The position numbers and the translations under genes are program-made. The notes under the pieces are model-generated. The model did not search any database. It was not told where the DNA came from and saw only the letters and a program-made list of their open reading frames with translations. A stretch of 41,290 nt of DNA from a bacterium (GTDB lineage Bacteria > UBP15 > UBA6099 > JAJRTR01), in the NCBI GenBank assembly GCA_024278215.1, contig JAJRTR010000164.1, positions 1 to 41,290 on the forward strand. The letters are read 5' to 3'. Below are positions 8,278-20,491 of this stretch, in pieces; the first letter of the stretch is position 1; every line of letters begins with the position of its first letter.

Positions 8278-8708
8278 CGTGATACCTGTTGTCAAACCGC
8301 AAATATATATAATGTCGTATCAACAAAGAAAAGACGGAAGAACAGATAAGGCCCAGCCTGCAAGTCGAAGTTGCGCCTGAAATTAATCTTTCACACCGGG
8401 GCGCAAGAAAAACCATCGCACGCGCAAGTTTTCACAAGTCACGGCAGTCATTTTCCGGTATTCAGCAATTAATCAACCAGCAGAACTCAACAAAACAGGG
8501 GTTTCCGTTCTGGCACTATATGTACGGTTGCTTGCAATTGATTCACAACTATACAATACTTAATATAAGGCAGATATACTTAAACATTGCGTTTTCAGGT
8601 AACCCCAGATACCTCCTTATTGCATCTTTAGGTAACCTCACCCCAATACATGGGCCGAGTGAGGATTGTTTATTTACCGAACACTATATCGGACACTACA
8701 GGAGAAAA
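8278..8708. other. 431-bp non-coding spacer before the lipid-head-group operon
   Basis: There is no convincing gene here. The frame of the downstream nucleotidyltransferase is open back to 8520, but those residues do not resemble its family. The spacer holds the promoter at 8538-8566. Two GGTAACC boxes about 35 bases apart (around 8600-8640) lie between the promoter and the start codon; their meaning is unknown. No clear terminator was seen for the upstream operon. Confidence 0.6.
8538..8566 (+). promoter_or_regulatory. Sigma70-type promoter for the nucleotidyltransferase operon
   Basis: A -35 box TTGATT (8538-8543), a 17-base spacer and a -10 box TAATAT (8561-8566). Both boxes are close to consensus with optimal spacing. 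Transcription would begin near 8573 and leave a leader of about 135 bases before the TTG start at 8709. Confidence 0.6.
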
Positions 8709-9575
8709 TTGGTCATATCAAACGAAAACGATTATATCGAAGAACGTGTAACAACAGCCGTACTCCTTGCAGCCGGCACAGGAACACGCCTGCAACCCTT
8801 GACGCTCAATTCACCCAAATGCATGACTATGGTAAATGAAACTTCCATATTAGAGCGATTAATATCCAGCCTGAATCAACATGGTTTCAAACGTCTGGTT
8901 GTGGTCACAGGCCACCTGGAATCCTGTATTCGCAGATATCTGGGGAACCGGGCCGGCAACATGAAGATTGAATATGTTTTCAGTCCACTATATAAGACAA
9001 CCAATAACATATATTCACTATGGATGGCCCGCAAAATTATAAACGAGCCTTTTTTGCTGATTGAAAGTGACCTTGTTTTTGATCCATTTTTATTGTGTAA
9101 CATGCTTTATCCTGACAGAATTGCAGTTGCTCGCGTGCAGCCATGGCTTCACGGTTCAGCAGTTACAATAAATCAGTTCAACATGGTTGATGCATTCCAT
9201 AATGACACTATAAACCTTCCAGGGGAGATAAGATATAAGACTGTCAATATCTACAGCCTTTCCCTCTCTTCGTGGAACAGGGTTGTCGAGACATTAAATA
9301 AGTATGTTCTGGCAGGTGAAGTGAATAGCTATTACGAAGCCGTGTTCGGTCGAATGGTTGCAGAAAAGCGCTTATCATTTCAAGCTGTTTTTTTTGACGG
9401 TAACCCATGGTATGAAATTGACACCTTAGAGGATCTTGCATCAGCGGAAAGGCTGTTCCCTTCGAAATTTTGTGAAGCGATCCCCTTTCAGCATATACAT
9501 ACAGGTAGTTTGATAAACACAAACCTGCATGCCGGTAAAACAACCTGTAATGGAAATAATCATGGTGAATTCTGA
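8709..9575 (+). CDS. Nucleotidyltransferase (LicC/PntC-like CTP:phospho-alcohol cytidylyltransferase)
   Basis: A MobA/GT-A-like NTP transferase of 288 aa. The nucleotide-binding signature AVLLAAGTGTRLQPLT followed by SPKCM lies at about residues 17-39. TTNNIYSLWMA and LLIESDLVF (metal-binding aspartate) are typical of the phosphocholine, phosphonate and inositol-phosphate cytidylyltransferase group. WYEIDTLEDL near the end is the usual C-terminal motif. The start chosen is TTG at 8709, directly after AGGAGAAAA; the frame is open further upstream but the extra residues are unlike the family. The expected reaction is CTP plus a phosphorylated amino alcohol, inositol phosphate or phosphonate giving the CDP derivative. 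The overlap with the PLP enzyme and the following phosphatidyltransferase point to lipid head-group activation. The exact substrate cannot be read from sequence. Confidence 0.82.
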   Translation: MVISNENDYIEERVTTAVLLAAGTGTRLQPLTLNSPKCMTMVNETSILERLISSLNQHGFKRLVVVTGHLESCIRRYLGNRAGNMKIEYVFSPLYKTTNNIYSLWMARKIINEPFLLIESDLVFDPFLLCNMLYPDRIAVARVQPWLHGSAVTINQFNMVDAFHNDTINLPGEIRYKTVNIYSLSLSSWNRVVETLNKYVLAGEVNSYYEAVFGRMVAEKRLSFQAVFFDGNPWYEIDTLEDLASAERLFPSKFCEAIPFQHIHTGSLINTNLHAGKTTCNGNNHGEF

Positions 9576-10671
9576 TTACAAAACCCAGGCGGATAAGTAT
9601 GAATTCATCGCAGGTCAGCATGGAGGATACTATCGCCATGACTTTATAGACCATGCGTATCTGTATAACCTTTATTTTCCTCCTGAAGAAGTTTTTGATA
9701 TCTTAAAAAACCGAATCCACGACCTTGTTCTTAACTACCCTGTTGCCCAGAACGCCCTTGCCGCTCTTGTGGGTAACCTGATTAATCAACACCCTCAACG
9801 TATTGTTGTCGGTAACGGTGCAGCAGAACTTATCAAAATAGTCTCAGGACATATTGCCCACAGGATTATTGTTCCAGTACCTTCTTTTAATGAATATATA
9901 AACGCAGCACCAAAGGTGCGGGCCATAGAGTTTCTACTTGAATTTCCGTCCTTTCATCTGGATGTAGATAAATTTGCAGCTCAAGCGATTAAAGACAAAG
10001 CAGATGTTGCTGTTGTGGTAACACCGAATAACCCGACCTCCATGGCCATTCCCAAACTCGATCTAATACGCCTGGCAAAAAAACTGGCCAATCATGATTG
10101 TCATCTGATTATTGATGAATCCTTTATCGATTTTGTCGTGGACAGCGCTCAGACAACCATGGAACGTGAAATTGAGCAATATCCGAACATTTCCATTTTC
10201 AAAAGCATGAGTAAGGCATATGGCATCTGTGGTCTTCGCATCGGCTATCTTCTGACGGCAAATTCAGAATTTGCCCAAGCTGTACGTCAAGGAGTTCATA
10301 TCTGGAACATTAACGGATTTGCCGAGGAGTTCTTAAGGATTTTACCCGATTTTAGTGAAGTTTTTATTGAAAGCTGTAACCATGTAAAGGAAGACCGTGA
10401 CAAGCTTTATGAAGACCTGAAGAGTTTTCCGGAAGTAAAGATTTACAAACCTGATGCTAACTTTATTTTTTGCCGTCTGCCTGATTCCGCGCCAAATGGG
10501 CCTGAAATAACAAAGAAATTATTTATTGAGCATAACATTTACATAAAACACTGTCGGGATAAAACTCTTCAGGATTCTGACCGTTACATTCGTATTGCTT
10601 CTCGAACTCAAAGCGAGAATTCCAACCTGTTGGATGCACTGGCGTCTATCCTTGGATATAAAAACAGTTAG
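9562..10671 (+). CDS. PLP-dependent class I/II aminotransferase-fold enzyme (CobD/HisC-like)
   Basis: A fold-type I PLP enzyme of 369 aa. Visible motifs are VVGNGAAELI (phosphate-binding region), TPNNPTS, IIDESFIDF and SMSKAYGICGLRIGY, where K218 is the Schiff-base lysine. The pattern matches histidinol-phosphate aminotransferase and its relative CobD, which decarboxylates threonine phosphate. A CobD-like enzyme acting on phosphoserine would yield ethanolamine phosphate, a ready substrate for a LicC-type cytidylyltransferase; a transaminase is equally possible. The start is uncertain: ATG at 9529, 9550 or 9562. The last is preferred because GGAA lies 6 bases upstream and family similarity begins soon after. 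It overlaps the nucleotidyltransferase by 14 bases, which indicates coupling. The stop is TAG, and the phosphatidyltransferase starts 10 bases later. Confidence 0.85.
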   Translation: MVNSDYKTQADKYEFIAGQHGGYYRHDFIDHAYLYNLYFPPEEVFDILKNRIHDLVLNYPVAQNALAALVGNLINQHPQRIVVGNGAAELIKIVSGHIAHRIIVPVPSFNEYINAAPKVRAIEFLLEFPSFHLDVDKFAAQAIKDKADVAVVVTPNNPTSMAIPKLDLIRLAKKLANHDCHLIIDESFIDFVVDSAQTTMEREIEQYPNISIFKSMSKAYGICGLRIGYLLTANSEFAQAVRQGVHIWNINGFAEEFLRILPDFSEVFIESCNHVKEDRDKLYEDLKSFPEVKIYKPDANFIFCRLPDSAPNGPEITKKLFIEHNIYIKHCRDKTLQDSDRYIRIASRTQSENSNLLDALASILGYKNS

Positions 10672-10681
10672 GGCAGACTTA

Positions 10682-11329
10682 ATGAAAAAGTCACAATATC
10701 CGCAATCACATCAGACAGGAATGCTTTACTTTGCCAGAGATATTCCAAACATCTGTTCCCTTGCCGGGCTTTTATGTGCTGTCCTGGGCATGTACTTTGC
10801 TATTCTGCGAATTTTTCCGGTGGCCATCACAGGAATGCTCTGGGCTGTTGTTTTTGACTGGAGTGATGGAATCATTGCCCGCAAAATAAAGGGCAGAACA
10901 GATGTGCAAAGAACATTCGGCGGACAGCTGGATTCATTGATCGATATGGTAAGCTTCGGAATATGTCCTGCTGTTATTCTTTTAAGCTATGGGGATTTTA
11001 GTCCATGGTTCCTGCCGGGAGCCTTTGTAATTGTCGCCACCAGTGCAATAAGACTGAGCTACTTCAATGTTTTCGGCCTTGTAGATGATTCAACTTATAT
11101 GGGGCTTGCACTTGATAACAATATAATAATTCTTTCTTTTGTTTTTCTATTTGATAGTTTTTTCAGCCACTCGGTTTTTTCGGCCATTCTCTATACAATG
11201 TTCATGGTTCTGGCGGCTTTTAACATAGCTTCTGTTAAAACCCCAAAATTCACCGGAAAATGGTTTTATATTCTCATACTTTATTCAATCACATTAACAA
11301 TTATCTACAGTTGGATACTATGGGGATGA
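10682..11329 (+). CDS. CDP-alcohol phosphatidyltransferase (PssA-like)
   Basis: An integral membrane enzyme of 215 aa. The signature is D59-x2-D62-G-x2-A-R67 ... G80-x3-D84-x3-D88, and these Asp residues bind metal and the CDP donor. The stretch between AR and the second Gly is 12 residues rather than the common 8. VSFGICPA and AIRLSYFNV resemble phosphatidylserine synthase PssA (VTFGVAPS, RLARFNV). About six hydrophobic segments are apparent. The ATG at 10682 lies 10 bases after the aminotransferase stop. With a cytidylyltransferase in the same operon, the enzyme might use the CDP-activated amino alcohol as donor and diacylglycerol (or inositol) as acceptor, rather than CDP-diacylglycerol and serine. 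Both readings fit the family. Confidence 0.85.
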   Translation: MKKSQYPQSHQTGMLYFARDIPNICSLAGLLCAVLGMYFAILRIFPVAITGMLWAVVFDWSDGIIARKIKGRTDVQRTFGGQLDSLIDMVSFGICPAVILLSYGDFSPWFLPGAFVIVATSAIRLSYFNVFGLVDDSTYMGLALDNNIIILSFVFLFDSFFSHSVFSAILYTMFMVLAAFNIASVKTPKFTGKWFYILILYSITLTIIYSWILWG

Positions 11330-11759
11330 GCACGACAAATAAGTGTAAACAATACAGTTCCTTGCCTGAATCCGAATACCTGCACGTTTTTGTCATTTTT
11401 CGAAATCCATATCCATATTTTGATCATTCTATCCACCCAATAAACAGGGATTATCACGAATAGAATTGTTTCCCTGATTTCAGAGCAAAATATTTCCCCT
11501 TCTTTCAGAATCCCTAACCCGGAAAACCGGTGCCAAACAGGCCGCATTTTCGTGCCCAAACAAATGCGGTTTGAGCACGGCACACAGAGTTCCATCGTTC
11601 TAAAGGTCTACCTCGGAAACGCCTGTAACTGGAAGCTCCAGCTTTCACCGATCTCTTTTCAGCATTTCTCTACCATCCTGCGTAGCATTTCAGTCGTAAG
11701 ATACAATTGAAAACCGCTATAGAAATCACCGATTGTTCATTTCTTTGATTATGATGATA

Positions 11760-11795
11760 TATCCTTCTGTCTGCGCGACCATGGGCTCGTGCTCC
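11760..11795 (+). repeat. 36-bp direct repeat, copy 1
   Basis: It is identical to 22936-22971 at 35 of 36 positions and in the same orientation; the difference is T here against G there in GACCATGGG/GACCAGGGG. The identity stops abruptly on both sides. The two copies bracket the three-gene secreted island. Read on the minus strand, each copy continues an open frame containing EHEP(M/L)VAQTEGY, so it may be a relic of coding DNA rather than an attachment site. Confidence 0.7.
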
Positions 11796-11898
11796 AGCCG
11801 GGCCGCCCTGCTTTACTCGAAATAATTTCGCCCGGACTCGTAACAAACGTGATTTTGTACATGGCTCTTTTGGGAGATTATAAAAATCATGAAAAGTC

Positions 11899-11926
11899 TT
11901 GATAAAAGGTCAAATAATGTTATACT
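11899..11926 (+). promoter_or_regulatory. Sigma70-type promoter for the secreted-protein operon
   Basis: A -35 box TTGATA (11899-11904), a 16-base spacer and a -10 box TATACT (11921-11926). It would give a leader of nearly 200 bases before the ATG at 12130, including a small hairpin at 12065-12081. Confidence 0.55.
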
Positions 11927-12129
11927 TAGCGCCAATCAATTCAATTCAAATCATTTCATTCATTTTGATGACGAATGTGTCGGTTCATTTCAGGTGAATA
12001 TACGATGAGGAACGCCATTTTCAGGTATCGTGTACGGTCAGTTGGGAAGATCGTAAAAATACCGATCCGTTGAAGACGGATGTATGTTCTGAAAATCGAC
12101 GACAATCACGGTATACCAGGGAAAAAAAT

Positions 12130-15100
12130 ATGATAAATACAAAGTTGATCAAGGGAATCGTTTTTACGGTGTCATTTTTTTTGTGTGGTCTGTTTGCGGC
12201 TGTGCCTGCCGCGGCGCAGGACACAACGCCACCCTCGTGCGTTGTTGACGAGCTGGCCGATATACAGGGCGAGGCCACTTTCGCGGTGCACTGGGCCGGT
12301 GCCGACGAGTCCGGCGGATCGGGACTGACGGGGCTGTATCGTGTGCAGGTGCAGGACGCTGCCGAGGGTACATGGACCGACTGGCTGGTGAATACGGAAC
12401 AGACTAACGGCAGTTTTGCGGGCCTGGACGGACATACATATTATTTTCAGTGTGCGGCTAAAGATGTCGCAGGCAACTGGACCGCGCTTGCCGCCGATGG
12501 GTTCGGAGACACGGCTACTACGGTCAGGACGGAAAATTTGTCCGTCCAAATTGTTAACGACGGCACGGGCGATGATACCGATTTCACTTCCAGCGCCGAC
12601 ACACTGTCCGGCAACTGGAGCGAGGCATCAGGGGCCGTGGGCTACTCCTATTGCATCGGCACGGCTCCCGGCGAGGCCAATGTTCTGGCATGGACCGATA
12701 CGTCGAGCACTTCCTTCACCGACTCGGGACTCACCCTGGTGCACGGTGTGGTTTACTATATTTCCGTGCGTGCCAAAACCGCCGCGGATTACTATGGCGA
12801 CATATCTGTTTCGGACGGTATCGTTTCAGACCAGACAGCGCCGGACGCGCCATCGGTGGATACGGACGCGCAGATTCAATCCACAAGCATGATCCAGGCC
12901 ACATGGTCAGCCTCCGATCCCGAGTCCGGCATAGTGCGTTACGAAGTGTCCGTGGGCACGACGGCGGGTGGCACCGATGTCGGCGACTGGGCGTCCGCGG
13001 GTTCGGCCACGGTGTATGACATTACGGGATTGAGCCTTACCGTGGGCGGCACATATTTCGTAAATGTGCGTGCTGTCAACGGCGCAGGGGCCGTGAGCGA
13101 CGTGGGATCGTCGTCCGCTGTCGTCGTGGTCGGCACAATACCGGCCGCGCCCGCGTATGTTAACGACGGCACCGGCCAGGACGCGGAGTACACCTCCGAT
13201 ACCACACGGCTGTCGGCCAACTGGAGCGCTGTCGCCGACGCCTCAAGATATGATTATGCCGTCGGGACAACACCGCTGGGCACCGACATCGTGAACTGGA
13301 CGGACGCGGGAGCGGTTACCTCTTACGAAGTATCTTCGCTCACACTTACTTCCGGAACCACGTACTATTTTTCGGTTCGCGCGATCAACGGGTCCACACC
13401 GGGACCGGCCATAACCTCGGACGGTATAACCGCGGACACCTCCGCGCCCAGCACACCGATTGTCGAAACCCCCGAATTGCTGATAAGCAATACCACACAG
13501 TTGCAGGCTTCGTGGAACGCGGAGGAACCTGAATCCGAAATCACACTTTATGAATATGCCGTGGGAACATCTCCCACGAGTCAGGATGCCCTGGGTTGGA
13601 CCGGCACCGGCACCAGCGTCTCCGTCGTCATCAACAATATAGACATGCAAGTGGGTAAGACCTATTTTATCCAGGTGCGGGCCACAAACGGCGCGGGTCT
13701 TGTCAGCAACACAGGTGTGTCCGATGCAGTCGTTGTCACACACAACGCAGACATTACCACTACTTTCAGCCCTTCCGAAGTCACTACCGTTCAGACCGAT
13801 GCCGGGAACGCCGACTCTATTATTACAATATATTTCAACGAAAGCAGTGGCGTTGGTGTGGACTATCATCAGCTACAGATGCTTTATGTACTCGACAACG
13901 GCACCGAGTTCGAAGACCAGGTACGAATGATCACCGGTACGGGGCAGCCCGATCCCATCCAGGTGGGCGGAGACGCCGGTATGTCCATCGACGCCGGAAT
14001 ATCCATCACCCCGGGCGGGGCTGAATCGTATCGTTTCGCAGTGGTGATTCCCGAATACATTGTAACCCATGCGGTGGGCGGACGTGCCGATGCTTCTTTG
14101 ACAATGCGTTTCATCTTCACCGGTACGGACGAAAGCAAGCAGGAAGTGACAACAATTACGAACGTGCCTCTGGTTCTTTCTTCACATGCCGCCGCCGCTT
14201 CAGACCTGCACGTGGACGAAGTATCCATCACATCGCCCACCGCCGGCATGAATATCACGAACCCCGTTGCTTTTGCCGCCGCCGCCACCGTCAAAACCAC
14301 GGGCAGCGGAGACATCAAGGGCTACTGGGAACTCGACGGACGGCCCTACCACGAATTCAGGGAACACGCCTCCGCGGGAAGCGACATGACATTGAGTGTA
14401 AAGCTGCCCGAGTCGCTGGGGGGCCGCCACACGCTTATTCTGAAGATCATCATGCCGGAAGTTATGGAATCCGCACCGGTCGTCTTTACTGTAACCGACG
14501 TAATCAAGGGGGCCGTATTTACGGACTTCTGGGCCGGGGACCTTCACTTCACCGATGTGCGCGCAATCTTCGATGGAGACCTCAAGGCTTACAGCGGGTC
14601 CGCAAAACTGGAATACGGAGTGATCAGGCTCGAAACACCTGTTCCTTTCAGCAACCTGACAATCGAAGAACGAAACGGACGCTATGAGCTTACAGGCGGT
14701 GCCCTCAAGACAGAGATCGATTTCAGAGAAGTTCATGATGCACTCAGCATCTATGTGGACCGGCTGGCTGTGACCACGAGCGGAGCGAAGGTGGACGGGC
14801 GTGTGCATTTCGAAGGAGCCGATGGGGTGCCGGGCATAGGGCCGCTGCATTTCTACGGTGTTGACATTACATCCGACGGCATTACAGGCTCGGTAACATT
14901 CCCTGAAAAGCAACAGGGCACCATCGGCATTTTCAACATCGCCATCAACTCCGTACATTTTTCATACACTTCCGGCGGGCTGACGCTGGACGCCTCTGCC
15001 GTGCTCACACTGGGCGACGAGGGAACAGCGGGCGGTTCACTGGATTGCGTATTCAGCGTTTCCAGTTCCGGTTCGGCTGTTTTCCGGGTCGGCGAGCAGG

Positions 15101-18100
15101 CATACGAAAAAGCAGGTATCACCGACACACAATCCGGGCTCGGCAACGATCTGGTACTGGCTGGATTCACGTACCATGTAACCTATGGCGAACTCAGCGA
15201 AAAAGACGGCGCACTGGCTCTCGACGCCACCGGCGGCGCACTGGACGCGGCAGCGGCTCTCGGACCCGGAGTCAAGCTGAATATCGGCTCCTTACGTATG
15301 ATCGACACGGGCTCGATCACGCTGTCGGACATATCGTCGCCCGAATTCAGTTTCGGCTCCTTCTCGGCAAAAGCCACAGCACGTGAAATCACGCTTTCTC
15401 TGGGTGAGATCCCGGACCTTGTTCTGGACATGGAGATCACAGCGCCGATGGGCGGCGGGAAGCTCGTGTTGACCGCAGAAAATGTCCCTGTTGGCAAAGA
15501 AGGCATCCGTGATGCGGACATCACCGTCAAACCCGCCGGAGGCAGCGATCATGTGGCGGAACTCCGCTTGCTCGACTGGGCGGACCTGAAGGTAAGTAGC
15601 GCAATCATACACGTCAAGGACCGCAAACCCACAGGTATGGTTCTGACGGCAGGGCTGTCTTTCGACGGCAAAGGTTTCGAATCTGAAAATATTACCTGGG
15701 AAAACAACGACTGGAGCGGTACGCTGCACGCCGTGGGCGATCCGTCATTCGAGCTTGCAGGCGCGAAAATGGAGTTCCCGGCGGGCAGTGAGATAGACCT
15801 TACCATGAAAGGCGAGGGCAATGACGGACACAGCGTCGCCGTAATATTCAAAAACACTTCATTCGACTTTTCCGGACTGATAGGCAAGCCTTTCAAGTTC
15901 ACCGTGGACGAGTTGTCTGTAACCGACGGTGCAGTCGCCGCGGACGTCAGCGTGCATGACACCGTTACGCTGGCCGACCTGTCGCTTGCTATCAACAAGT
16001 TGCATATCGACAGCCCCAGACCCGCCACGGGCGGTAAACGGACAATCGACGCACTGCTCGGAGGCACACTTATTCTGAACGCCGGGCGTAAAATAAAAAT
16101 CGGATTCAACAATATGAAGATGTCGAGCACCGGTGAGATCGGTGGCGATATTTCTCCGGGTTACGACACGGAGTTCAACATGTTCGGGGCCTCGTTCCGG
16201 ATCAAAAAGATACATCTTGACAAACCGGCGGACGGCGAACTCCGGTTCACTATGGACGGCTCTATAGGATTCCTGAATTCACGCGTGGACTTTACGGGCA
16301 TGACATACAGGAAAGGCAAACTGAACGTACACGCCGAAGTGTCGGGAAACGCACCGCTGCGAATGCCCGGCCTGCATTTCATAGGCTTCACAAAGCTTGA
16401 CGTAGTGGACAACAAACTGGAGGCCGACGGATTTTTCGAACTGCCCGCGCCCATCAACAAGCGTGTTCCGCTGGAAAACCTCGCCATCGACACATCCGGC
16501 GGGCTGCCCGACAGAATTGAGATCGACAATCTTTCTTTCAACGTGGACGACTTCACGTTCAAAGTCTCGAAGGCGAGTTTCGAGTTTAAAACCAAGGCAC
16601 TGACACTCGATGGGAATATTGCATTGCCTGACGGATATTTCGACCAGATGATACCGTTCCGGAATGTGAGCCTGACAATGCCCGAGGGCGATTCAGGGCG
16701 TCCCGCGCAGGCGGATATGTCAAAGGCAAGCACGACGGCCACGGAGATAAAGGACACAAGGCACAACCTCCCGCTCCAGATCAGCAAGTTTTCCATCGGC
16801 ATCGATCCTGCTCACAACAGCAAGTGGTTCGTGAATCTGTCGGGCAAGCTCAGTATGGAACTCGACGGCCAGAGTTTTTACCTGGACTTCCTGAATTATA
16901 AAATATACTCGGACATGAGCATGAGCATGGGCAGAGTATCAGGCGGATTGAAGATCGGCGGGTTCGACGTAAATGTAGACGACCTCGATATCGTGGACAA
17001 CGTGAGCGATCCATACACTCAGATAACCGGTGGCATGTCCATGGAATCGCTCGGCACCGTTGCGGTCAAGGACCTGCGCATACACAGGTCGGGAGCCGTG
17101 GAACTGGCCGGAGTGCATCTTGACATGGACTACAACGCCTACAAATATGACGTGAACATCAGCTATATCGACAAGACATTCAAGGGCAGCGGCAGGATCA
17201 CGTTTGAAAACGAGGAACTCGACGTGTCCGCTATATTCGGTCCTTCCGAATGGATGCTGGACATAGAGGCAAGCGGCCTCGACATCGAACTGTTCCCGGG
17301 CGTGACCCTGGTAAAGGTCGGCGGCGGCGTGCATTACTGGAAAAACAGCAATTTGCTGAAATTCAAAATCGACTGCGGACTTGCTCTCCCCGAAAAAGAT
17401 GTGCTGTACGGAGACGTCGAACTTGACGTGGCCACCAATGGGATCATCGGCATCAATGGGAATCTCATCATGTTCGACTCCCTGCCGGTCAAGGAGGCCT
17501 ACATCCATATCGATATTCCACACGCTACCCTGGCCGGCACAATTGTGCTGAATAAAACAATTGGAGGCGTCGCGAATGCCGATGTGACGCTCGATGTTTT
17601 GTTTTCGCCGAACAACTGGTATCTCAGCGGCAATGGCAACGCAAACATACTGGGAAGTCTCAGTATCAATCCAGTGAGCTTCCGGCTTGACAGCAACGGT
17701 TTCCGCGCAAGCGGCCACAGCAATATCAATGTTGTAATTATGACTGCGGGATTTGATTTTAACCTTGACATAACCACCGGAGGCAGCGTGAGCGGCTCAT
17801 TCGCCGGTCACGTGGGTGCCACGATTCTTGGCATTGTACACGTTTCAGGCGACCTGGAGGTAGCCTATATCAACGGCGCGTTCGACGGCCATGTCGGGCT
17901 GAGCGGCTGCCTCGACGTCTGCATGCCCGGCTGCTCCTGGCACTGGGTAAACCACTGCTGCTGCGGTTTCAATTATCCCTGCGGCTGCTCATGGCACTGG
18001 TGGGGCATTTCCTGTGGTTCATGCCACACGCAAATATGTGTTCCCCTGTACCAGCCCTATAATTGCAGTTGGTGTTACAGTAAAATCCATAAATGCGCCA

Positions 18101-18153
18101 GCATCAATGTTTACCTGCGGATCGACAGCGGCGGCATTCACGCCCATCTATAA
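12130..18153 (+). CDS. Giant secreted FN3/beta-repeat protein with Cys-Trp-rich tail
   Basis: A 2007-residue exported protein of unknown function. ATG 12130 is chosen because AGGGA lies 7 bases upstream and a signal peptide follows at once (hydrophobic core, cleavage near AVPAAAQ). Residues about 30-530 hold five fibronectin-III-like domains with recurring VNDGTG, LSANWS, YYFSVRA and GAGLVS motifs. Residues about 535-800 include a further Ig-like part (SPTAGMNITNPV). Residues about 800-1900 are a long series of short amphipathic strands in repeats such as VDGRVHFEG, reminiscent of AsmA/TamB-type or beta-solenoid domains (inference). Residues 1927-1989 form a tail with 14 Cys and 6 Trp, including HCCCGF and SWHWWG. 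It is first in an operon with an FN3 protein and an outer-membrane barrel, so a surface structure is likely. Confidence 0.85.
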   Translation: MINTKLIKGIVFTVSFFLCGLFAAVPAAAQDTTPPSCVVDELADIQGEATFAVHWAGADESGGSGLTGLYRVQVQDAAEGTWTDWLVNTEQTNGSFAGLDGHTYYFQCAAKDVAGNWTALAADGFGDTATTVRTENLSVQIVNDGTGDDTDFTSSADTLSGNWSEASGAVGYSYCIGTAPGEANVLAWTDTSSTSFTDSGLTLVHGVVYYISVRAKTAADYYGDISVSDGIVSDQTAPDAPSVDTDAQIQSTSMIQATWSASDPESGIVRYEVSVGTTAGGTDVGDWASAGSATVYDITGLSLTVGGTYFVNVRAVNGAGAVSDVGSSSAVVVVGTIPAAPAYVNDGTGQDAEYTSDTTRLSANWSAVADASRYDYAVGTTPLGTDIVNWTDAGAVTSYEVSSLTLTSGTTYYFSVRAINGSTPGPAITSDGITADTSAPSTPIVETPELLISNTTQLQASWNAEEPESEITLYEYAVGTSPTSQDALGWTGTGTSVSVVINNIDMQVGKTYFIQVRATNGAGLVSNTGVSDAVVVTHNADITTTFSPSEVTTVQTDAGNADSIITIYFNESSGVGVDYHQLQMLYVLDNGTEFEDQVRMITGTGQPDPIQVGGDAGMSIDAGISITPGGAESYRFAVVIPEYIVTHAVGGRADASLTMRFIFTGTDESKQEVTTITNVPLVLSSHAAAASDLHVDEVSITSPTAGMNITNPVAFAAAATVKTTGSGDIKGYWELDGRPYHEFREHASAGSDMTLSVKLPESLGGRHTLILKIIMPEVMESAPVVFTVTDVIKGAVFTDFWAGDLHFTDVRAIFDGDLKAYSGSAKLEYGVIRLETPVPFSNLTIEERNGRYELTGGALKTEIDFREVHDALSIYVDRLAVTTSGAKVDGRVHFEGADGVPGIGPLHFYGVDITSDGITGSVTFPEKQQGTIGIFNIAINSVHFSYTSGGLTLDASAVLTLGDEGTAGGSLDCVFSVSSSGSAVFRVGEQAYEKAGITDTQSGLGNDLVLAGFTYHVTYGELSEKDGALALDATGGALDAAAALGPGVKLNIGSLRMIDTGSITLSDISSPEFSFGSFSAKATAREITLSLGEIPDLVLDMEITAPMGGGKLVLTAENVPVGKEGIRDADITVKPAGGSDHVAELRLLDWADLKVSSAIIHVKDRKPTGMVLTAGLSFDGKGFESENITWENNDWSGTLHAVGDPSFELAGAKMEFPAGSEIDLTMKGEGNDGHSVAVIFKNTSFDFSGLIGKPFKFTVDELSVTDGAVAADVSVHDTVTLADLSLAINKLHIDSPRPATGGKRTIDALLGGTLILNAGRKIKIGFNNMKMSSTGEIGGDISPGYDTEFNMFGASFRIKKIHLDKPADGELRFTMDGSIGFLNSRVDFTGMTYRKGKLNVHAEVSGNAPLRMPGLHFIGFTKLDVVDNKLEADGFFELPAPINKRVPLENLAIDTSGGLPDRIEIDNLSFNVDDFTFKVSKASFEFKTKALTLDGNIALPDGYFDQMIPFRNVSLTMPEGDSGRPAQADMSKASTTATEIKDTRHNLPLQISKFSIGIDPAHNSKWFVNLSGKLSMELDGQSFYLDFLNYKIYSDMSMSMGRVSGGLKIGGFDVNVDDLDIVDNVSDPYTQITGGMSMESLGTVAVKDLRIHRSGAVELAGVHLDMDYNAYKYDVNISYIDKTFKGSGRITFENEELDVSAIFGPSEWMLDIEASGLDIELFPGVTLVKVGGGVHYWKNSNLLKFKIDCGLALPEKDVLYGDVELDVATNGIIGINGNLIMFDSLPVKEAYIHIDIPHATLAGTIVLNKTIGGVANADVTLDVLFSPNNWYLSGNGNANILGSLSINPVSFRLDSNGFRASGHSNINVVIMTAGFDFNLDITTGGSVSGSFAGHVGATILGIVHVSGDLEVAYINGAFDGHVGLSGCLDVCMPGCSWHWVNHCCCGFNYPCGCSWHWWGISCGSCHTQICVPLYQPYNCSWCYSKIHKCASINVYLRIDSGGIHAHL

Positions 18154-18175
18154 GCGGGACTTTCGGAGGACATAA

Positions 18176-20491
18176 ATGAAACGAATCGTTTTATACATTA
18201 TTGCAGTACTTGTATTCCTGTGCGGAATTTCCGATGCACAAACAAAAGACATCACCGAACCCGCGTCCCACGCACTGGCTACGGATTCCGCCGTGTACAT
18301 GTTCGTTAATGTATTGCCGATGGACGGAGTGGCGGGCTTCATGGTGTACCGCGCAGACGAACCCATCGCCGCACTCAACCGCGAGCACGGCGCCTTCTCT
18401 GAAAAATCATCTTCAGACCTGAAAACCGGTCTGGATTCCGCGCACCGCCAGATCCTCGACAAAATACTCGAGGGCAAAACCCTGGACGAACTGCAAAAGG
18501 AAATCGAAGAACTCGAGAAAACTGACCCACAGGCTGCCGAAAAACGCAAACAGGAAATAAAGGCCGCTATCGAACAGAATATCAGGGATTACGAAACCGC
18601 TTCCGAAAAACTGCAACACGACAGCAAGAACGCACTGGACCAGCACCATGAGGATTATAAGAATAAGGTGGAAAACGCCATCGAGAACGGTCCGGCCCCG
18701 GAGGACTTCAAACTGCTCACGGACACACCCGTGACACCCTTCACCGACGATCAGAAAATCATGGACGAACTCAACCTCGTCGACCTCGATTCACTTAAGG
18801 CGATGGGGCTGCAGTCCGCTTCGGAACTGGTGACGAAATATGACGAACACAAGGGCAATATCAACCTGCTCCTCCTGCACTCCCTGCCTGTAAACAGAAT
18901 CATGGGCCGCGTATACGAAGACACCACCGTGACGCCCGGCAACGGGTACGTTTACCGCGTGGACCTTGTAGATGATAAAGGCAATGTGGTGCGCAGCCTG
19001 CCCCCGATCACCGTCATCGCACAACCCAATCCACCGGCCACTCCTACAGGGTTCATAGCCGAGGCGAAATCGGATCATGTCGAACTGCGCTGGGACAAAC
19101 CCTCTAACATTCCTACCGGCTGGATCATTCTGCGCTCGGATTCTTCCCGCGATGCAGAGTTCACAAAGATCAATCCCGGCGTTATTTCAAGCATCGGTAA
19201 GTCCATATTCAAAGATTATTCGGTCAAACCCGGCATGAAACTCAGTTACAAACTTTTCGCCGTGGACACTGTGGGCAACCGTAGCATACCCGCGGAATCA
19301 CCGTCTTTCACCTTCGTGGACATCGTTCCACCGGCTCCACCCACAGGCGTAAAAGCCGTTTTGAAAAACGGTCGCATCTCCCTGACCTGGCCCCGAAGCA
19401 GGGAAACAGACCTGGCCGGCTACAATGTCTACCGCAGTAATACTCCGGATGGAGACTTCAAGTTGCTCACCGACACATCGCTGGCCGCAGACGCCGTCGA
19501 ACACATATCGGATGTGAATGTACCCGGCACTGTCCATTACTATCGCATAACCGCTCTGGACACTACAGGCAACGAAAGTGCGCCTTCACATTTAGCATGG
19601 GTCGTACCCCCGGACACTCTGGGGCCGGATTCCATCTCCGATCTCTCGGTGGAACAATCGGGGCCGGACTCCGTGACTCTGACATGGACCTGCAACGAAC
19701 CGAAGGACATGCACGGGTATCACATTTATCGCGGCTACTCGAAGGACAGCCTGAAAAAGATACACACATCCGTCATCCCCAAAGGAACATATTCCTATGA
19801 GGACAGCAACCTGCGTCCGGGCGAAACTTACTACTATGCGGTCGCGGGTGTCGACATCAATATGAACGAAGGCGCTCTTTCCGGTATCGTCGAGGTCGTC
19901 GCTCCCGACAGTGAAGCCCCCCTGCATCCCGCCAACATCGCCGCCGCGCCCGGCGACGGGATGGTCACGTTGTCGTGGCCCGCGAACCACGAACCGGATG
20001 TGGCCGCATACCACCTGTATCGCTCAAACGGGGAAAACAGCCCCTTTTCCAGAATCTTTATTTCCGACGCTGCAACTACGCAATATGTGGACAAAGATGT
20101 GGAGAACGGACTGGAATATATGTACTTCATCAAGGCCGTGGACAGTGCGGGCAACGAAAGCGCACAATCGCATACGGCATACGCAACCCCGCGTGACACC
20201 GCGGCACCGGCAGCCCCACGAGACACGAACGTCGAGGTGTCTGCCGCAGGCGTCACAATCTCATGGAAAGCGCCGAATGAACACGACATCGTGGGATACC
20301 TTGTGCTGCGCGCACAAGCGGAAACCGCCGTATATGAAACCATTACCGATCAGCCCGTAACCAACAACAGCTACACCGACACAACCGCCGCGGGAGAATG
20401 CTGGTACAAGATAGTAGCCGTTGATACATCGGGAAACAGAAGCCCGCGAAGCAACGCCGCGGGACCGGTCATACTCAGGGCCGGTAAGTAA
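18176..20491 (+). CDS. Secreted fibronectin type III repeat protein with coiled-coil insertion
   Basis: A 771-residue exported protein. GGAGG is 6 bases before the ATG, and the signal peptide ends near GISDAQ. Five clear FN3 domains of about 95 residues begin near residues 284, 384, 482, 580 and 676. They share a GYxxYRS, FxxL, Y(Y/F)(R/A)VxAVDxxGNES pattern. The N-terminal 250 residues look like a further FN3 domain split by an insert. GFMVYRADEP (residues about 52-61) and DFKLLTD (about 178) match consecutive parts of a normal domain (compare GYNVYRSN...GDFKLLTD in the second domain). Between them lies a highly charged helical stretch of about 115 residues, rich in Glu, Lys and Gln, likely a coiled coil. 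It follows the giant protein by 22 bases. A structural or adhesive extracellular role is probable; no enzymatic domain was seen. Confidence 0.85.
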   Translation: MKRIVLYIIAVLVFLCGISDAQTKDITEPASHALATDSAVYMFVNVLPMDGVAGFMVYRADEPIAALNREHGAFSEKSSSDLKTGLDSAHRQILDKILEGKTLDELQKEIEELEKTDPQAAEKRKQEIKAAIEQNIRDYETASEKLQHDSKNALDQHHEDYKNKVENAIENGPAPEDFKLLTDTPVTPFTDDQKIMDELNLVDLDSLKAMGLQSASELVTKYDEHKGNINLLLLHSLPVNRIMGRVYEDTTVTPGNGYVYRVDLVDDKGNVVRSLPPITVIAQPNPPATPTGFIAEAKSDHVELRWDKPSNIPTGWIILRSDSSRDAEFTKINPGVISSIGKSIFKDYSVKPGMKLSYKLFAVDTVGNRSIPAESPSFTFVDIVPPAPPTGVKAVLKNGRISLTWPRSRETDLAGYNVYRSNTPDGDFKLLTDTSLAADAVEHISDVNVPGTVHYYRITALDTTGNESAPSHLAWVVPPDTLGPDSISDLSVEQSGPDSVTLTWTCNEPKDMHGYHIYRGYSKDSLKKIHTSVIPKGTYSYEDSNLRPGETYYYAVAGVDINMNEGALSGIVEVVAPDSEAPLHPANIAAAPGDGMVTLSWPANHEPDVAAYHLYRSNGENSPFSRIFISDAATTQYVDKDVENGLEYMYFIKAVDSAGNESAQSHTAYATPRDTAAPAAPRDTNVEVSAAGVTISWKAPNEHDIVGYLVLRAQAETAVYETITDQPVTNNSYTDTTAAGECWYKIVAVDTSGNRSPRSNAAGPVILRAGK

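What the first reader, a model, noticed from the sequence alone, without database searches (positions are those of the whole stretch)
8709..11329. Compact operon that could make an amino-alcohol phospholipid from phosphoserine or a related compound
Sequence shows three overlapping or nearly overlapping genes: a LicC/PntC-type cytidylyltransferase, a CobD/HisC-like PLP enzyme and a CDP-alcohol phosphatidyltransferase, with their own promoter at 8538-8566. Known CobD-type enzymes decarboxylate threonine phosphate, and some act on serine phosphate. LicC-type enzymes make CDP-choline or similar, and the last family transfers head groups to lipid. Inference: phosphoserine to ethanolamine phosphate to CDP-ethanolamine to phosphatidylethanolamine, a Kennedy-like route rare in bacteria. 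An aminophosphonate lipid is the main alternative, but no PEP mutase is in the window.
Basis: partly seen in the sequence, partly recalled or inferred. Interest (0 to 1): 0.7.

Follow-up and report, generated by a model that had tools for sequence, protein, structure and literature searches.

The report
Mobile three-gene ethanolamine-lipid head-group pathway
A horizontally acquired three-gene unit, found in the same order in 14 other genomes, probably turns phosphoserine into CDP-ethanolamine and attaches it to a lipid, a bacterial relative of the eukaryotic Kennedy pathway that would skip the usual phosphatidylserine route; no step has been tested in the laboratory.

Summary
The trio is real: a LicC/PntC-type cytidylyltransferase (8709-9575), a PLP enzyme (start probably 9562, to 10671) and a CDP-alcohol phosphatidyltransferase (10682-11329). 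Fourteen other genomes, labelled from several phyla, carry it in the same order (PLP 61-81% identical; 100/99 clade), with no PEP mutase within 8 kb. In the window it is a 41% GC island on a native 50% GC contig, nearest to Desulfobacteraceae, so horizontally acquired. The PLP enzyme is neither HisC (the genome has one elsewhere) nor typical CobD. Its best structural relative is SMUL_1544, annotated as the phosphoserine decarboxylase of norcobamide synthesis, with which it shares residues that CobD lacks. The cytidylyltransferase keeps the Glu/Glu pair of AEP-type PntC. The transferase is PssA-like, but carries RLSYF where PssA has RLARF. The genome has no PEP mutase, no Psd and no other PF01066 protein. 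Best reading: phosphoserine to CDP-ethanolamine to an ethanolamine phospholipid. Cytidylylation may precede decarboxylation, as in FrbH. Twelve of 14 hosts also have Psd, so the product may be a special lipid; five carry an ATP-grasp ligase next door. The claimed promoter was not found. The same enzyme pair lies in clusters resembling fosfoxacin pathways.

The parts
8709..9575 (+). LicC/PntC-type cytidylyltransferase (TTG start, AGGAG at 8700-8704)
   Evidence: PF00483; GTR...PK motif; Glu at both amine-contact positions of PntC (E104/E196) invariant in the trio
9562..10671 (+). PLP enzyme, predicted phosphoserine (or CDP-serine) decarboxylase; alternative start 9529
   Evidence: best relative SMUL_1544 decarboxylase (6oux); Lys229 (numbered from 9529); Phe199/Trp259/Arg359 as in CobD, Asn260/Glu266 as in SMUL_1544, unlike HisC
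10682..11329 (+). PssA-like CDP-alcohol phosphatidyltransferase with RLSYF in place of RLARF and a longer CDP-OH motif
8278..12069 (.). low-GC island (trio 0.41, flanks 0.42, rest of window 0.51): horizontally acquired segment; edges approximate
   Evidence: tree neighbours Desulfobacula and Desulfobacteraceae

Best explanation
The trio is a self-contained, horizontally mobile head-group pathway. O-phosphoserine, an ordinary serine-pathway intermediate, is decarboxylated by the SMUL_1544-like PLP enzyme and activated with CTP by the PntC-like cytidylyltransferase, giving CDP-ethanolamine. The order is undecided: decarboxylation first via phosphoethanolamine, or cytidylylation first via CDP-serine as in FrbH. 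The PssA-like membrane transferase then passes phosphoethanolamine to a lipid alcohol, most simply diacylglycerol, giving phosphatidylethanolamine or a close relative without phosphatidylserine synthase and decarboxylase. In several hosts the amine is probably modified further (ATP-grasp ligase, methyltransferase). Shown: gene order, conservation, phylogeny, residue signatures, absence of PEP mutase, Psd and other PF01066 genes in this assembly. Inferred: every substrate and product.
For: Same-order trio in 14 other genomes, PLP 61-81% identical, monophyletic 100/99. The closest solved relative of the PLP enzyme is 6oux, titled 'SMUL_1544, a decarboxylase', identical over the compared stretch to a protein annotated 'norcobamide biosynthesis serine-O-phosphate decarboxylase'. 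Decarboxylase-type residues: F199/W259/R359 as in CobD and SMUL_1544 (HisC Y, Y/F, G); N260/E266 as in SMUL_1544 but not CobD. The NTase has Glu/Glu where AEP-specific PntC has E104/E196 and LicC has D105/D192 (PMC6697681). The transferase differs from genuine PssA of the same hosts by an invariant Arg-to-Tyr change and a longer motif, shared with transferases linked to the same enzyme pair elsewhere. No PEP mutase, Psd or other PF01066 in the genome. Independent hint: NTase-PLP fusions sit with N-hydroxylase plus formyl- or acetyltransferase genes, one with an extra DXR gene and no PepM in the stretch read, as expected for fosfoxacin, whose skeleton (from memory) is N-acyl-N-hydroxy phosphoethanolamine (PMC9782300).
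Against: No biochemistry exists for any trio member. Twelve of 14 other trio hosts also carry Psd, so a plain PE route would be redundant there. The transferase's nearest solved relative is a phosphatidylserine synthase, its serine-contact residues D, S, D, F are kept, human CEPT1 matches only weakly, and CdsA is present in the window genome, so use of CDP-DAG is possible. The nearest relatives of the trio PLP enzyme outside the clade are PepM-linked rhizobial enzymes that probably act on phosphonoalanine. Phosphothreonine is not excluded. The PLP structure model is poor (pLDDT 71).
Confidence: 0.6

Rival explanations
1. Aminophosphonate lipid: the PLP enzyme decarboxylates phosphonoalanine (or its CMP ester) to 2-aminoethylphosphonate, the NTase makes CMP-AEP and the transferase makes a phosphonolipid.
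For: The closest relatives outside the trio clade lie next to aepX (PEP mutase), an extra aminotransferase and a CDP-alcohol transferase on rhizobial plasmids; the NTase pocket residues match AEP-specific PntC; the Salinivirgaceae trio host has PepM at two places over the cut-off.
Against: No PEP mutase in the window genome (the PF13714 hit is PanB), none within 8 kb in any of the 14 trio loci, and a hit over the cut-off in only 1 of 14 host genomes (the G016 hit is PrpB-like).
Confidence: 0.13
2. The transferase is an ordinary phosphatidylserine synthase (CDP-DAG plus serine), and the NTase and PLP genes make CDP-ethanolamine or phosphoethanolamine for another use such as surface glycans.
For: Best structural match MjPSS; serine-site D, S, D, F conserved (PMC8633023); CdsA present; related NTase-PLP fusions in gut bacteria lie near LicD and Glyphos_transf genes and lack a CDP-OH gene.
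Against: TIGR00473 score 69 against cut-off 107; MjPSS Arg104 replaced by Tyr in all 15 trio copies and in six more NTase-PLP-linked copies, while PssA of the same hosts keeps RLARF; most hosts already have PssA plus Psd; the three genes are never separated in the 15 loci; Psd is absent from the window genome.
Confidence: 0.12
3. Same logic with another amino alcohol: phosphothreonine to 1-amino-2-propanol phosphate (CobD chemistry), or DHAP transaminated to serinol phosphate, giving an unusual amino-alcohol phospholipid.
For: CobD and HisC are the neighbouring families; an ATP-grasp ligase next to 5 of 14 trios and a methyltransferase inside one suggest a special head group; hosts with Psd would have no need of plain PE.
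Against: Residues at 260 and 266 match SMUL_1544 rather than CobD; Phe199 in place of the HisC Tyr argues against a transaminase; the NTase pocket residues match those for a small primary amine.
Confidence: 0.12

Closest known systems
SMUL_1544 serine-phosphate decarboxylase (norcobamide synthesis, PDB 6oux)
   Same: Best solved relative of the PLP enzyme by sequence and fold; F/W/N/E/R signature shared
   Different: About 30% identity; sits in a cobamide operon, no cytidylyltransferase or lipid transferase
FrbH of FR-900098 synthesis (fused cytidylyltransferase-decarboxylase)
   Same: Same pair of activities on a CMP-activated phospho(no) amino acid (PMC8976061); many trio relatives are fused NTase-PLP proteins
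   Different: Phosphonate substrate one carbon longer, fused in one protein, antibiotic pathway, no lipid transferase known to me; its sequence was not compared here
PntC / LicC cytidylyltransferases
   Same: NTase fold, catalytic motif, metal Asp; the Glu/Glu amine contacts match PntC (PMC6697681)
   Different: No PepM and no choline kinase in the trio loci; substrate inferred to be phosphoethanolamine or phosphoserine
Bacterial/archaeal PssA (MjPSS, 7b1k/7pow)
   Same: Fold, CDP-OH motif, most serine-site residues
   Different: Arg104 to Tyr, four extra residues inside the motif, genetic linkage to NTase-PLP
Kennedy CDP-ethanolamine/CDP-choline pathway, including the bacterial CDP-choline route of Treponema (from memory)
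   Same: CDP-amino-alcohol made in solution, then passed to a lipid
   Different: Head group made de novo by decarboxylating an amino acid phosphate, with no ethanolamine or choline kinase; transferase of the PssA type

Membership tests
CobD threonine-phosphate decarboxylase (TIGR01140) | Score over curated cut-off | tested here: not met
   180.7 bits against 290.55; CobD rows fall outside the 48-row clade that holds the trio
CobD threonine-phosphate decarboxylase (TIGR01140) | Decarboxylase-type active site (PLP Lys, Phe for the aminotransferase Tyr, Trp, phosphate-binding basic residues) | tested here: met
   K229, F199, W259, R355, K at the CobD R323 position
SMUL_1544-type serine-phosphate decarboxylase | Common clade, and Asn260/Glu266 residues that distinguish it from CobD | tested here: met
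   100/100 clade of 48 rows, although SMUL_1544 lies in a separate subclade; residues
SMUL_1544-type serine-phosphate decarboxylase | Activity on phosphoserine | not testable with these tools
   needs an assay
HisC | Score over cut-off; aminotransferase Tyr; no other hisC in the genome | tested here: not met
   137.1 against 276.55; F199; separate HisC at 362 bits
PntC/LicC cytidylyltransferase | GxG(T/S)R...PK motif, metal-binding Asp, C-terminal Glu/Asp | tested here: met
   GTR, PK, D113, E228, D230
PntC (AEP-type) versus LicC (choline-type) | Glu/Glu at E104/E196 versus Asp/Asp at D105/D192 | tested here: met
   Glu at both positions in all 14 aligned trio rows; the tryptophan of the choline box was ambiguous between two alignments
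CDP-alcohol phosphatidyltransferase (PF01066) | DxxDGxxAR...GxxxDxxxD and score over cut-off | tested here: met
   43 bits against 22; motif with x12 instead of x8
PssA (TIGR00473) | Score over cut-off and conserved RLARF arginine pair | tested here: not met
   69 against 107; RLSYF in all 15 copies
Aminophosphonate (Pnt) pathway | PEP mutase in the genome | tested here: not met
   TIGR02320: no match
Kennedy-type pathway | CDP-amino-alcohol as donor to a lipid acceptor | not testable with these tools
   inferred from linkage only

The most novel reading that the evidence does not exclude
The trio is the first described form of a mobile bacterial phosphoserine-to-CDP-ethanolamine lipid pathway, spread by horizontal transfer among sediment bacteria of several phyla. 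Where an ATP-grasp ligase accompanies it, it makes a new amine-modified (for example aminoacylated) ethanolamine phospholipid. In the window's own lineage, where no PgsA, PssA or Psd of the usual families was found (apart from one PgsA-like protein in a relative), it supplies a head-group chemistry the lineage otherwise lacks.
Probability: 0.35. Interest if true: 0.8.

Novelty: new variant of a known kind. Interest (0 to 1): 0.62.

Why it matters
Bacteria are generally taken to make phosphatidylethanolamine by decarboxylating phosphatidylserine. A soluble route from phosphoserine would be a second de novo way to an ethanolamine head group, easy to transfer between phyla, open to modification of the amine before attachment to lipid, and testable with three genes in E. 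coli psd or pssA mutants. The same enzyme pair recurs with PEP mutase, in glycan loci and in antibiotic-like clusters, so settling its substrate would annotate a large family now labelled 'histidinol-phosphate transaminase'.

Tried and rejected
1) HisC: rejected. 2) Mis-binned contig: rejected. The AddA-like helicase on the same contig has its full-length best match in a same-order genome (39%, 698 bits), and the contig's tetranucleotide profile fits the genome while only the trio deviates. 3) PepM elsewhere in the genome: not found; the weak PF13714 hit is PanB. 4) The trio as the only PE route in its hosts: rejected as a general claim, 12 of 14 other hosts have Psd. 5) Absence of CDP-DAG as an argument against PssA activity: failed, CdsA is present. 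6) Missing choline-box tryptophan as evidence against choline: dropped, because two alignments disagreed. 7) Promoter: not supported. 8) Searches of the order and phylum gave no close relatives in the 6 other genomes. 9) The AlphaFold model of the PLP enzyme was of low confidence; only its match ranking is used. 11) Literature searches found no paper describing the trio.
Full report
WHAT IS THERE. The window lies on contig C140 of a 4.55 Mb assembly (95% complete, 1.3% contamination) from a lineage in which only 7 genomes are held for the whole phylum. Three + strand genes run 8709-11329: a cytidylyltransferase (PF00483/PF12804), a class I/II PLP enzyme (PF00155) and a CDP-alcohol phosphatidyltransferase (PF01066). 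The PLP start at 9562 gives the 14-nt overlap also seen in L016, L017 and L025; the transferase starts at ATG 10682. The claimed promoter at 8538-8566 is not in the consensus scan.

NOT CHANCE, AND MOBILE. A genome-collection scan with a PLP alignment returned 14 loci with the PLP enzyme 61-81% identical, each with the NTase upstream and the transferase downstream in the same order. They are labelled Desulfobacteraceae, other Deltaproteobacteria, Zixibacteria, Bacteroidota, Gammaproteobacteria, Spirochaetales, Chloroflexi and Methanothrix. Some labels may reflect mis-binned metagenome contigs: the 'Chloroflexi' and 'Desulfuromonadales' copies are nearly alike, and a Methanothrix copy is suspicious. 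The 15 PLP proteins form one clade (100/99), as do the transferases (97/98). Beyond the trio almost nothing is shared; five loci have the same downstream gene. In the window the trio is 41% GC with strongly deviating tetranucleotides (0.45, against 0.36 for the 99th percentile of 3-kb pieces of the genome), on a contig that otherwise fits the genome. The AddA-like helicase on that contig has its full-length best match in a same-order genome. So the contig is native and the trio was acquired, probably from Desulfobacterota (nearest: Desulfobacula and Desulfobacteraceae).

THE PLP ENZYME. It scores 180.7 against the CobD model (cut-off 290.55) and 137.1 against HisC (cut-off 276.55). The genome has a separate HisC at 362 bits and an LL-diaminopimelate aminotransferase. 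The best solved relative by sequence is 6oux, which Foldseek lists as 'SMUL_1544, a decarboxylase from Sulfurospirillum multivorans' and ranks first, ahead of CobD, for a model of modest quality. The same sequence (letters compared by eye over the printed stretch) is annotated elsewhere as norcobamide serine-O-phosphate decarboxylase. In the tree the trio, rhizobial, fused and SMUL_1544 enzymes form a 48-row clade (100/100) without CobD or E. coli HisC. One row labelled HisC (Spirosoma, L143) falls inside that clade, but that label is an automatic annotation. Residues support a decarboxylase: Phe199, Trp259 and Arg359 as in CobD and SMUL_1544 (HisC Tyr, Tyr/Phe, Gly); Asn260 and Glu266 as in SMUL_1544 but not CobD.

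THE CYTIDYLYLTRANSFERASE. Nearest solved relatives are LicC and PntC. Rice et al. (PMC6697681) report that in AEP-specific PntC the amine is near Glu104 and Glu196, where choline-specific LicC has Asp105 and Asp192. The trio has Glu at both positions in all 14 aligned rows, as do the wider fused relatives. My MAFFT alignment is shifted by one residue around both sites relative to LicC or PntC; the equivalence rests on the ESD/DAD and YYE/EYE/YWD motifs and on the HMMER alignment. This suggests a small primary amine. AEP-type and phosphoethanolamine-type pockets cannot be told apart this way, and a phosphoserine substrate is not excluded.

THE TRANSFERASE. Sequence and fold place it next to phosphatidylserine synthase (MjPSS TM-score 0.65, human CEPT1 only weak). 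The MjPSS paper (PMC8633023) names Asp62, Ser63, Asp66 and Phe105 as serine contacts and Arg101/Arg104 as a conserved pair. The trio keeps all but Arg104, which is Tyr in all 15 copies. Genuine PssA proteins of the same hosts, several adjacent to psd, keep RLARF. Six further transferases linked to this NTase-PLP pair on plasmids also have RL[SA]YF. This marks a separate subfamily tied to the pair, consistent with loss of a carboxylate-bearing substrate, but it does not prove the donor.

GENOME CONTEXT. No PEP mutase (the weak PF13714 hit is PanB), no Psd and no other PF01066 gene were found in this genome; CdsA is present. Five of the six other genomes of the phylum have no PF01066 gene at all, and none has Psd. 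By contrast 12 of 14 other trio hosts have Psd and most have a PssA. Hence the trio cannot be explained everywhere as the sole PE route. Its product may be a dedicated lipid, or PE made under separate control.

WIDER FAMILY. The same NTase-PLP pair, often fused, occurs (a) with PEP mutase on rhizobial plasmids; (b) in gut bacteria next to LicD, octopine dehydrogenase/OCD, Glyphos_transf and methyltransferase genes, suggesting glycan decoration with modified phosphoethanolamine; (c) in antibiotic-like clusters. Cluster (c) in Priestia megaterium pBM700 has two ATP-grasp genes, a Lys/Orn-monooxygenase-like gene, an AAC(3)-like acetyltransferase, the fusion, a PF01066 gene and an extra DXR, without PepM in the stretch read. 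In Photorhabdus it has an MFS gene, a Lys/Orn-monooxygenase-like gene, the fusion and a formyltransferase. Fosfoxacin is the natural phosphate congener of fosmidomycin, a DXR inhibitor; the 1990 report describes nucleotide antibiotics named fosfadecin and fosfocytocin (PMC9782300). The skeleton, N-acyl-N-hydroxy phosphoethanolamine, is from memory. If these are fosfoxacin-type clusters, the pair makes CDP-ethanolamine from phosphoserine, which is independent support for the trio reading.

MECHANISM AND ORDER. FrbH, a fused cytidylyltransferase-decarboxylase, acts in the order CTP activation, then decarboxylation (PMC8976061). The trio may therefore run phosphoserine to CDP-serine to CDP-ethanolamine rather than through free phosphoethanolamine. 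Accessory genes (ATP-grasp ligase in five loci; a methyltransferase between NTase and PLP in L028) suggest modification of the amine in some hosts.

VERDICT. Observation right except for the promoter; interpretation right in its core and strengthened, but substrate, order and final lipid remain inferred. A new variant of a known kind (Kennedy-type logic with an amino acid phosphate decarboxylase), of above-average interest because it is directly testable.

Noticed in passing
L009 2058-8942 (Priestia megaterium pBM700, NC_014023) and L031 4383-10784 (Photorhabdus); also L010 (Erwinia rhapontici plasmid): NTase-PLP fusion with N-hydroxylase-like, acyl/formyltransferase and (pBM700) an extra DXR gene, no PepM in the stretch read: candidate fosfoxacin/fosfocytocin-type biosynthetic clusters, a phosphate version of FR-900098 logic.
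   Followed up: partly
genomes G002-G006 (and G000, G001): Small phylum in which five of seven genomes (67-97% complete) have no CDP-alcohol phosphatidyltransferase (PF01066) and none has Psd, although CdsA is present: unusual phospholipid synthesis, unexplained.
   Followed up: partly
L018, L020, L022, L023, L029 downstream of the trio: Conserved ~425-aa ATP-grasp-like ligase (LdmS/BesA-like by NCBIfam, no Pfam hit) next to the trio in 5 of 14 loci; may aminoacylate the head group.
   Followed up: partly
L028 6912-7742: SAM methyltransferase (PF05891/NodS-like) between NTase and PLP genes; possible N-methylation of the head group.
   Followed up: no
L015 5281-7137 (pNGR234a): Fused NTase-PLP homologue whose PLP lysine is replaced (KSLGAIMG for KSMSKAYG), so probably an inactive decarboxylase domain.
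   Followed up: no
window 12070-20491: Two large fibronectin-III-containing proteins (2027 and 771 aa) directly after the trio island; the first ends in a Cys-rich tail.
   Followed up: no
L022 and L023: Trio contigs labelled Desulfuromonadales and Chloroflexi carry nearly alike trio proteins: recent transfer or mis-binned contig.
   Followed up: no
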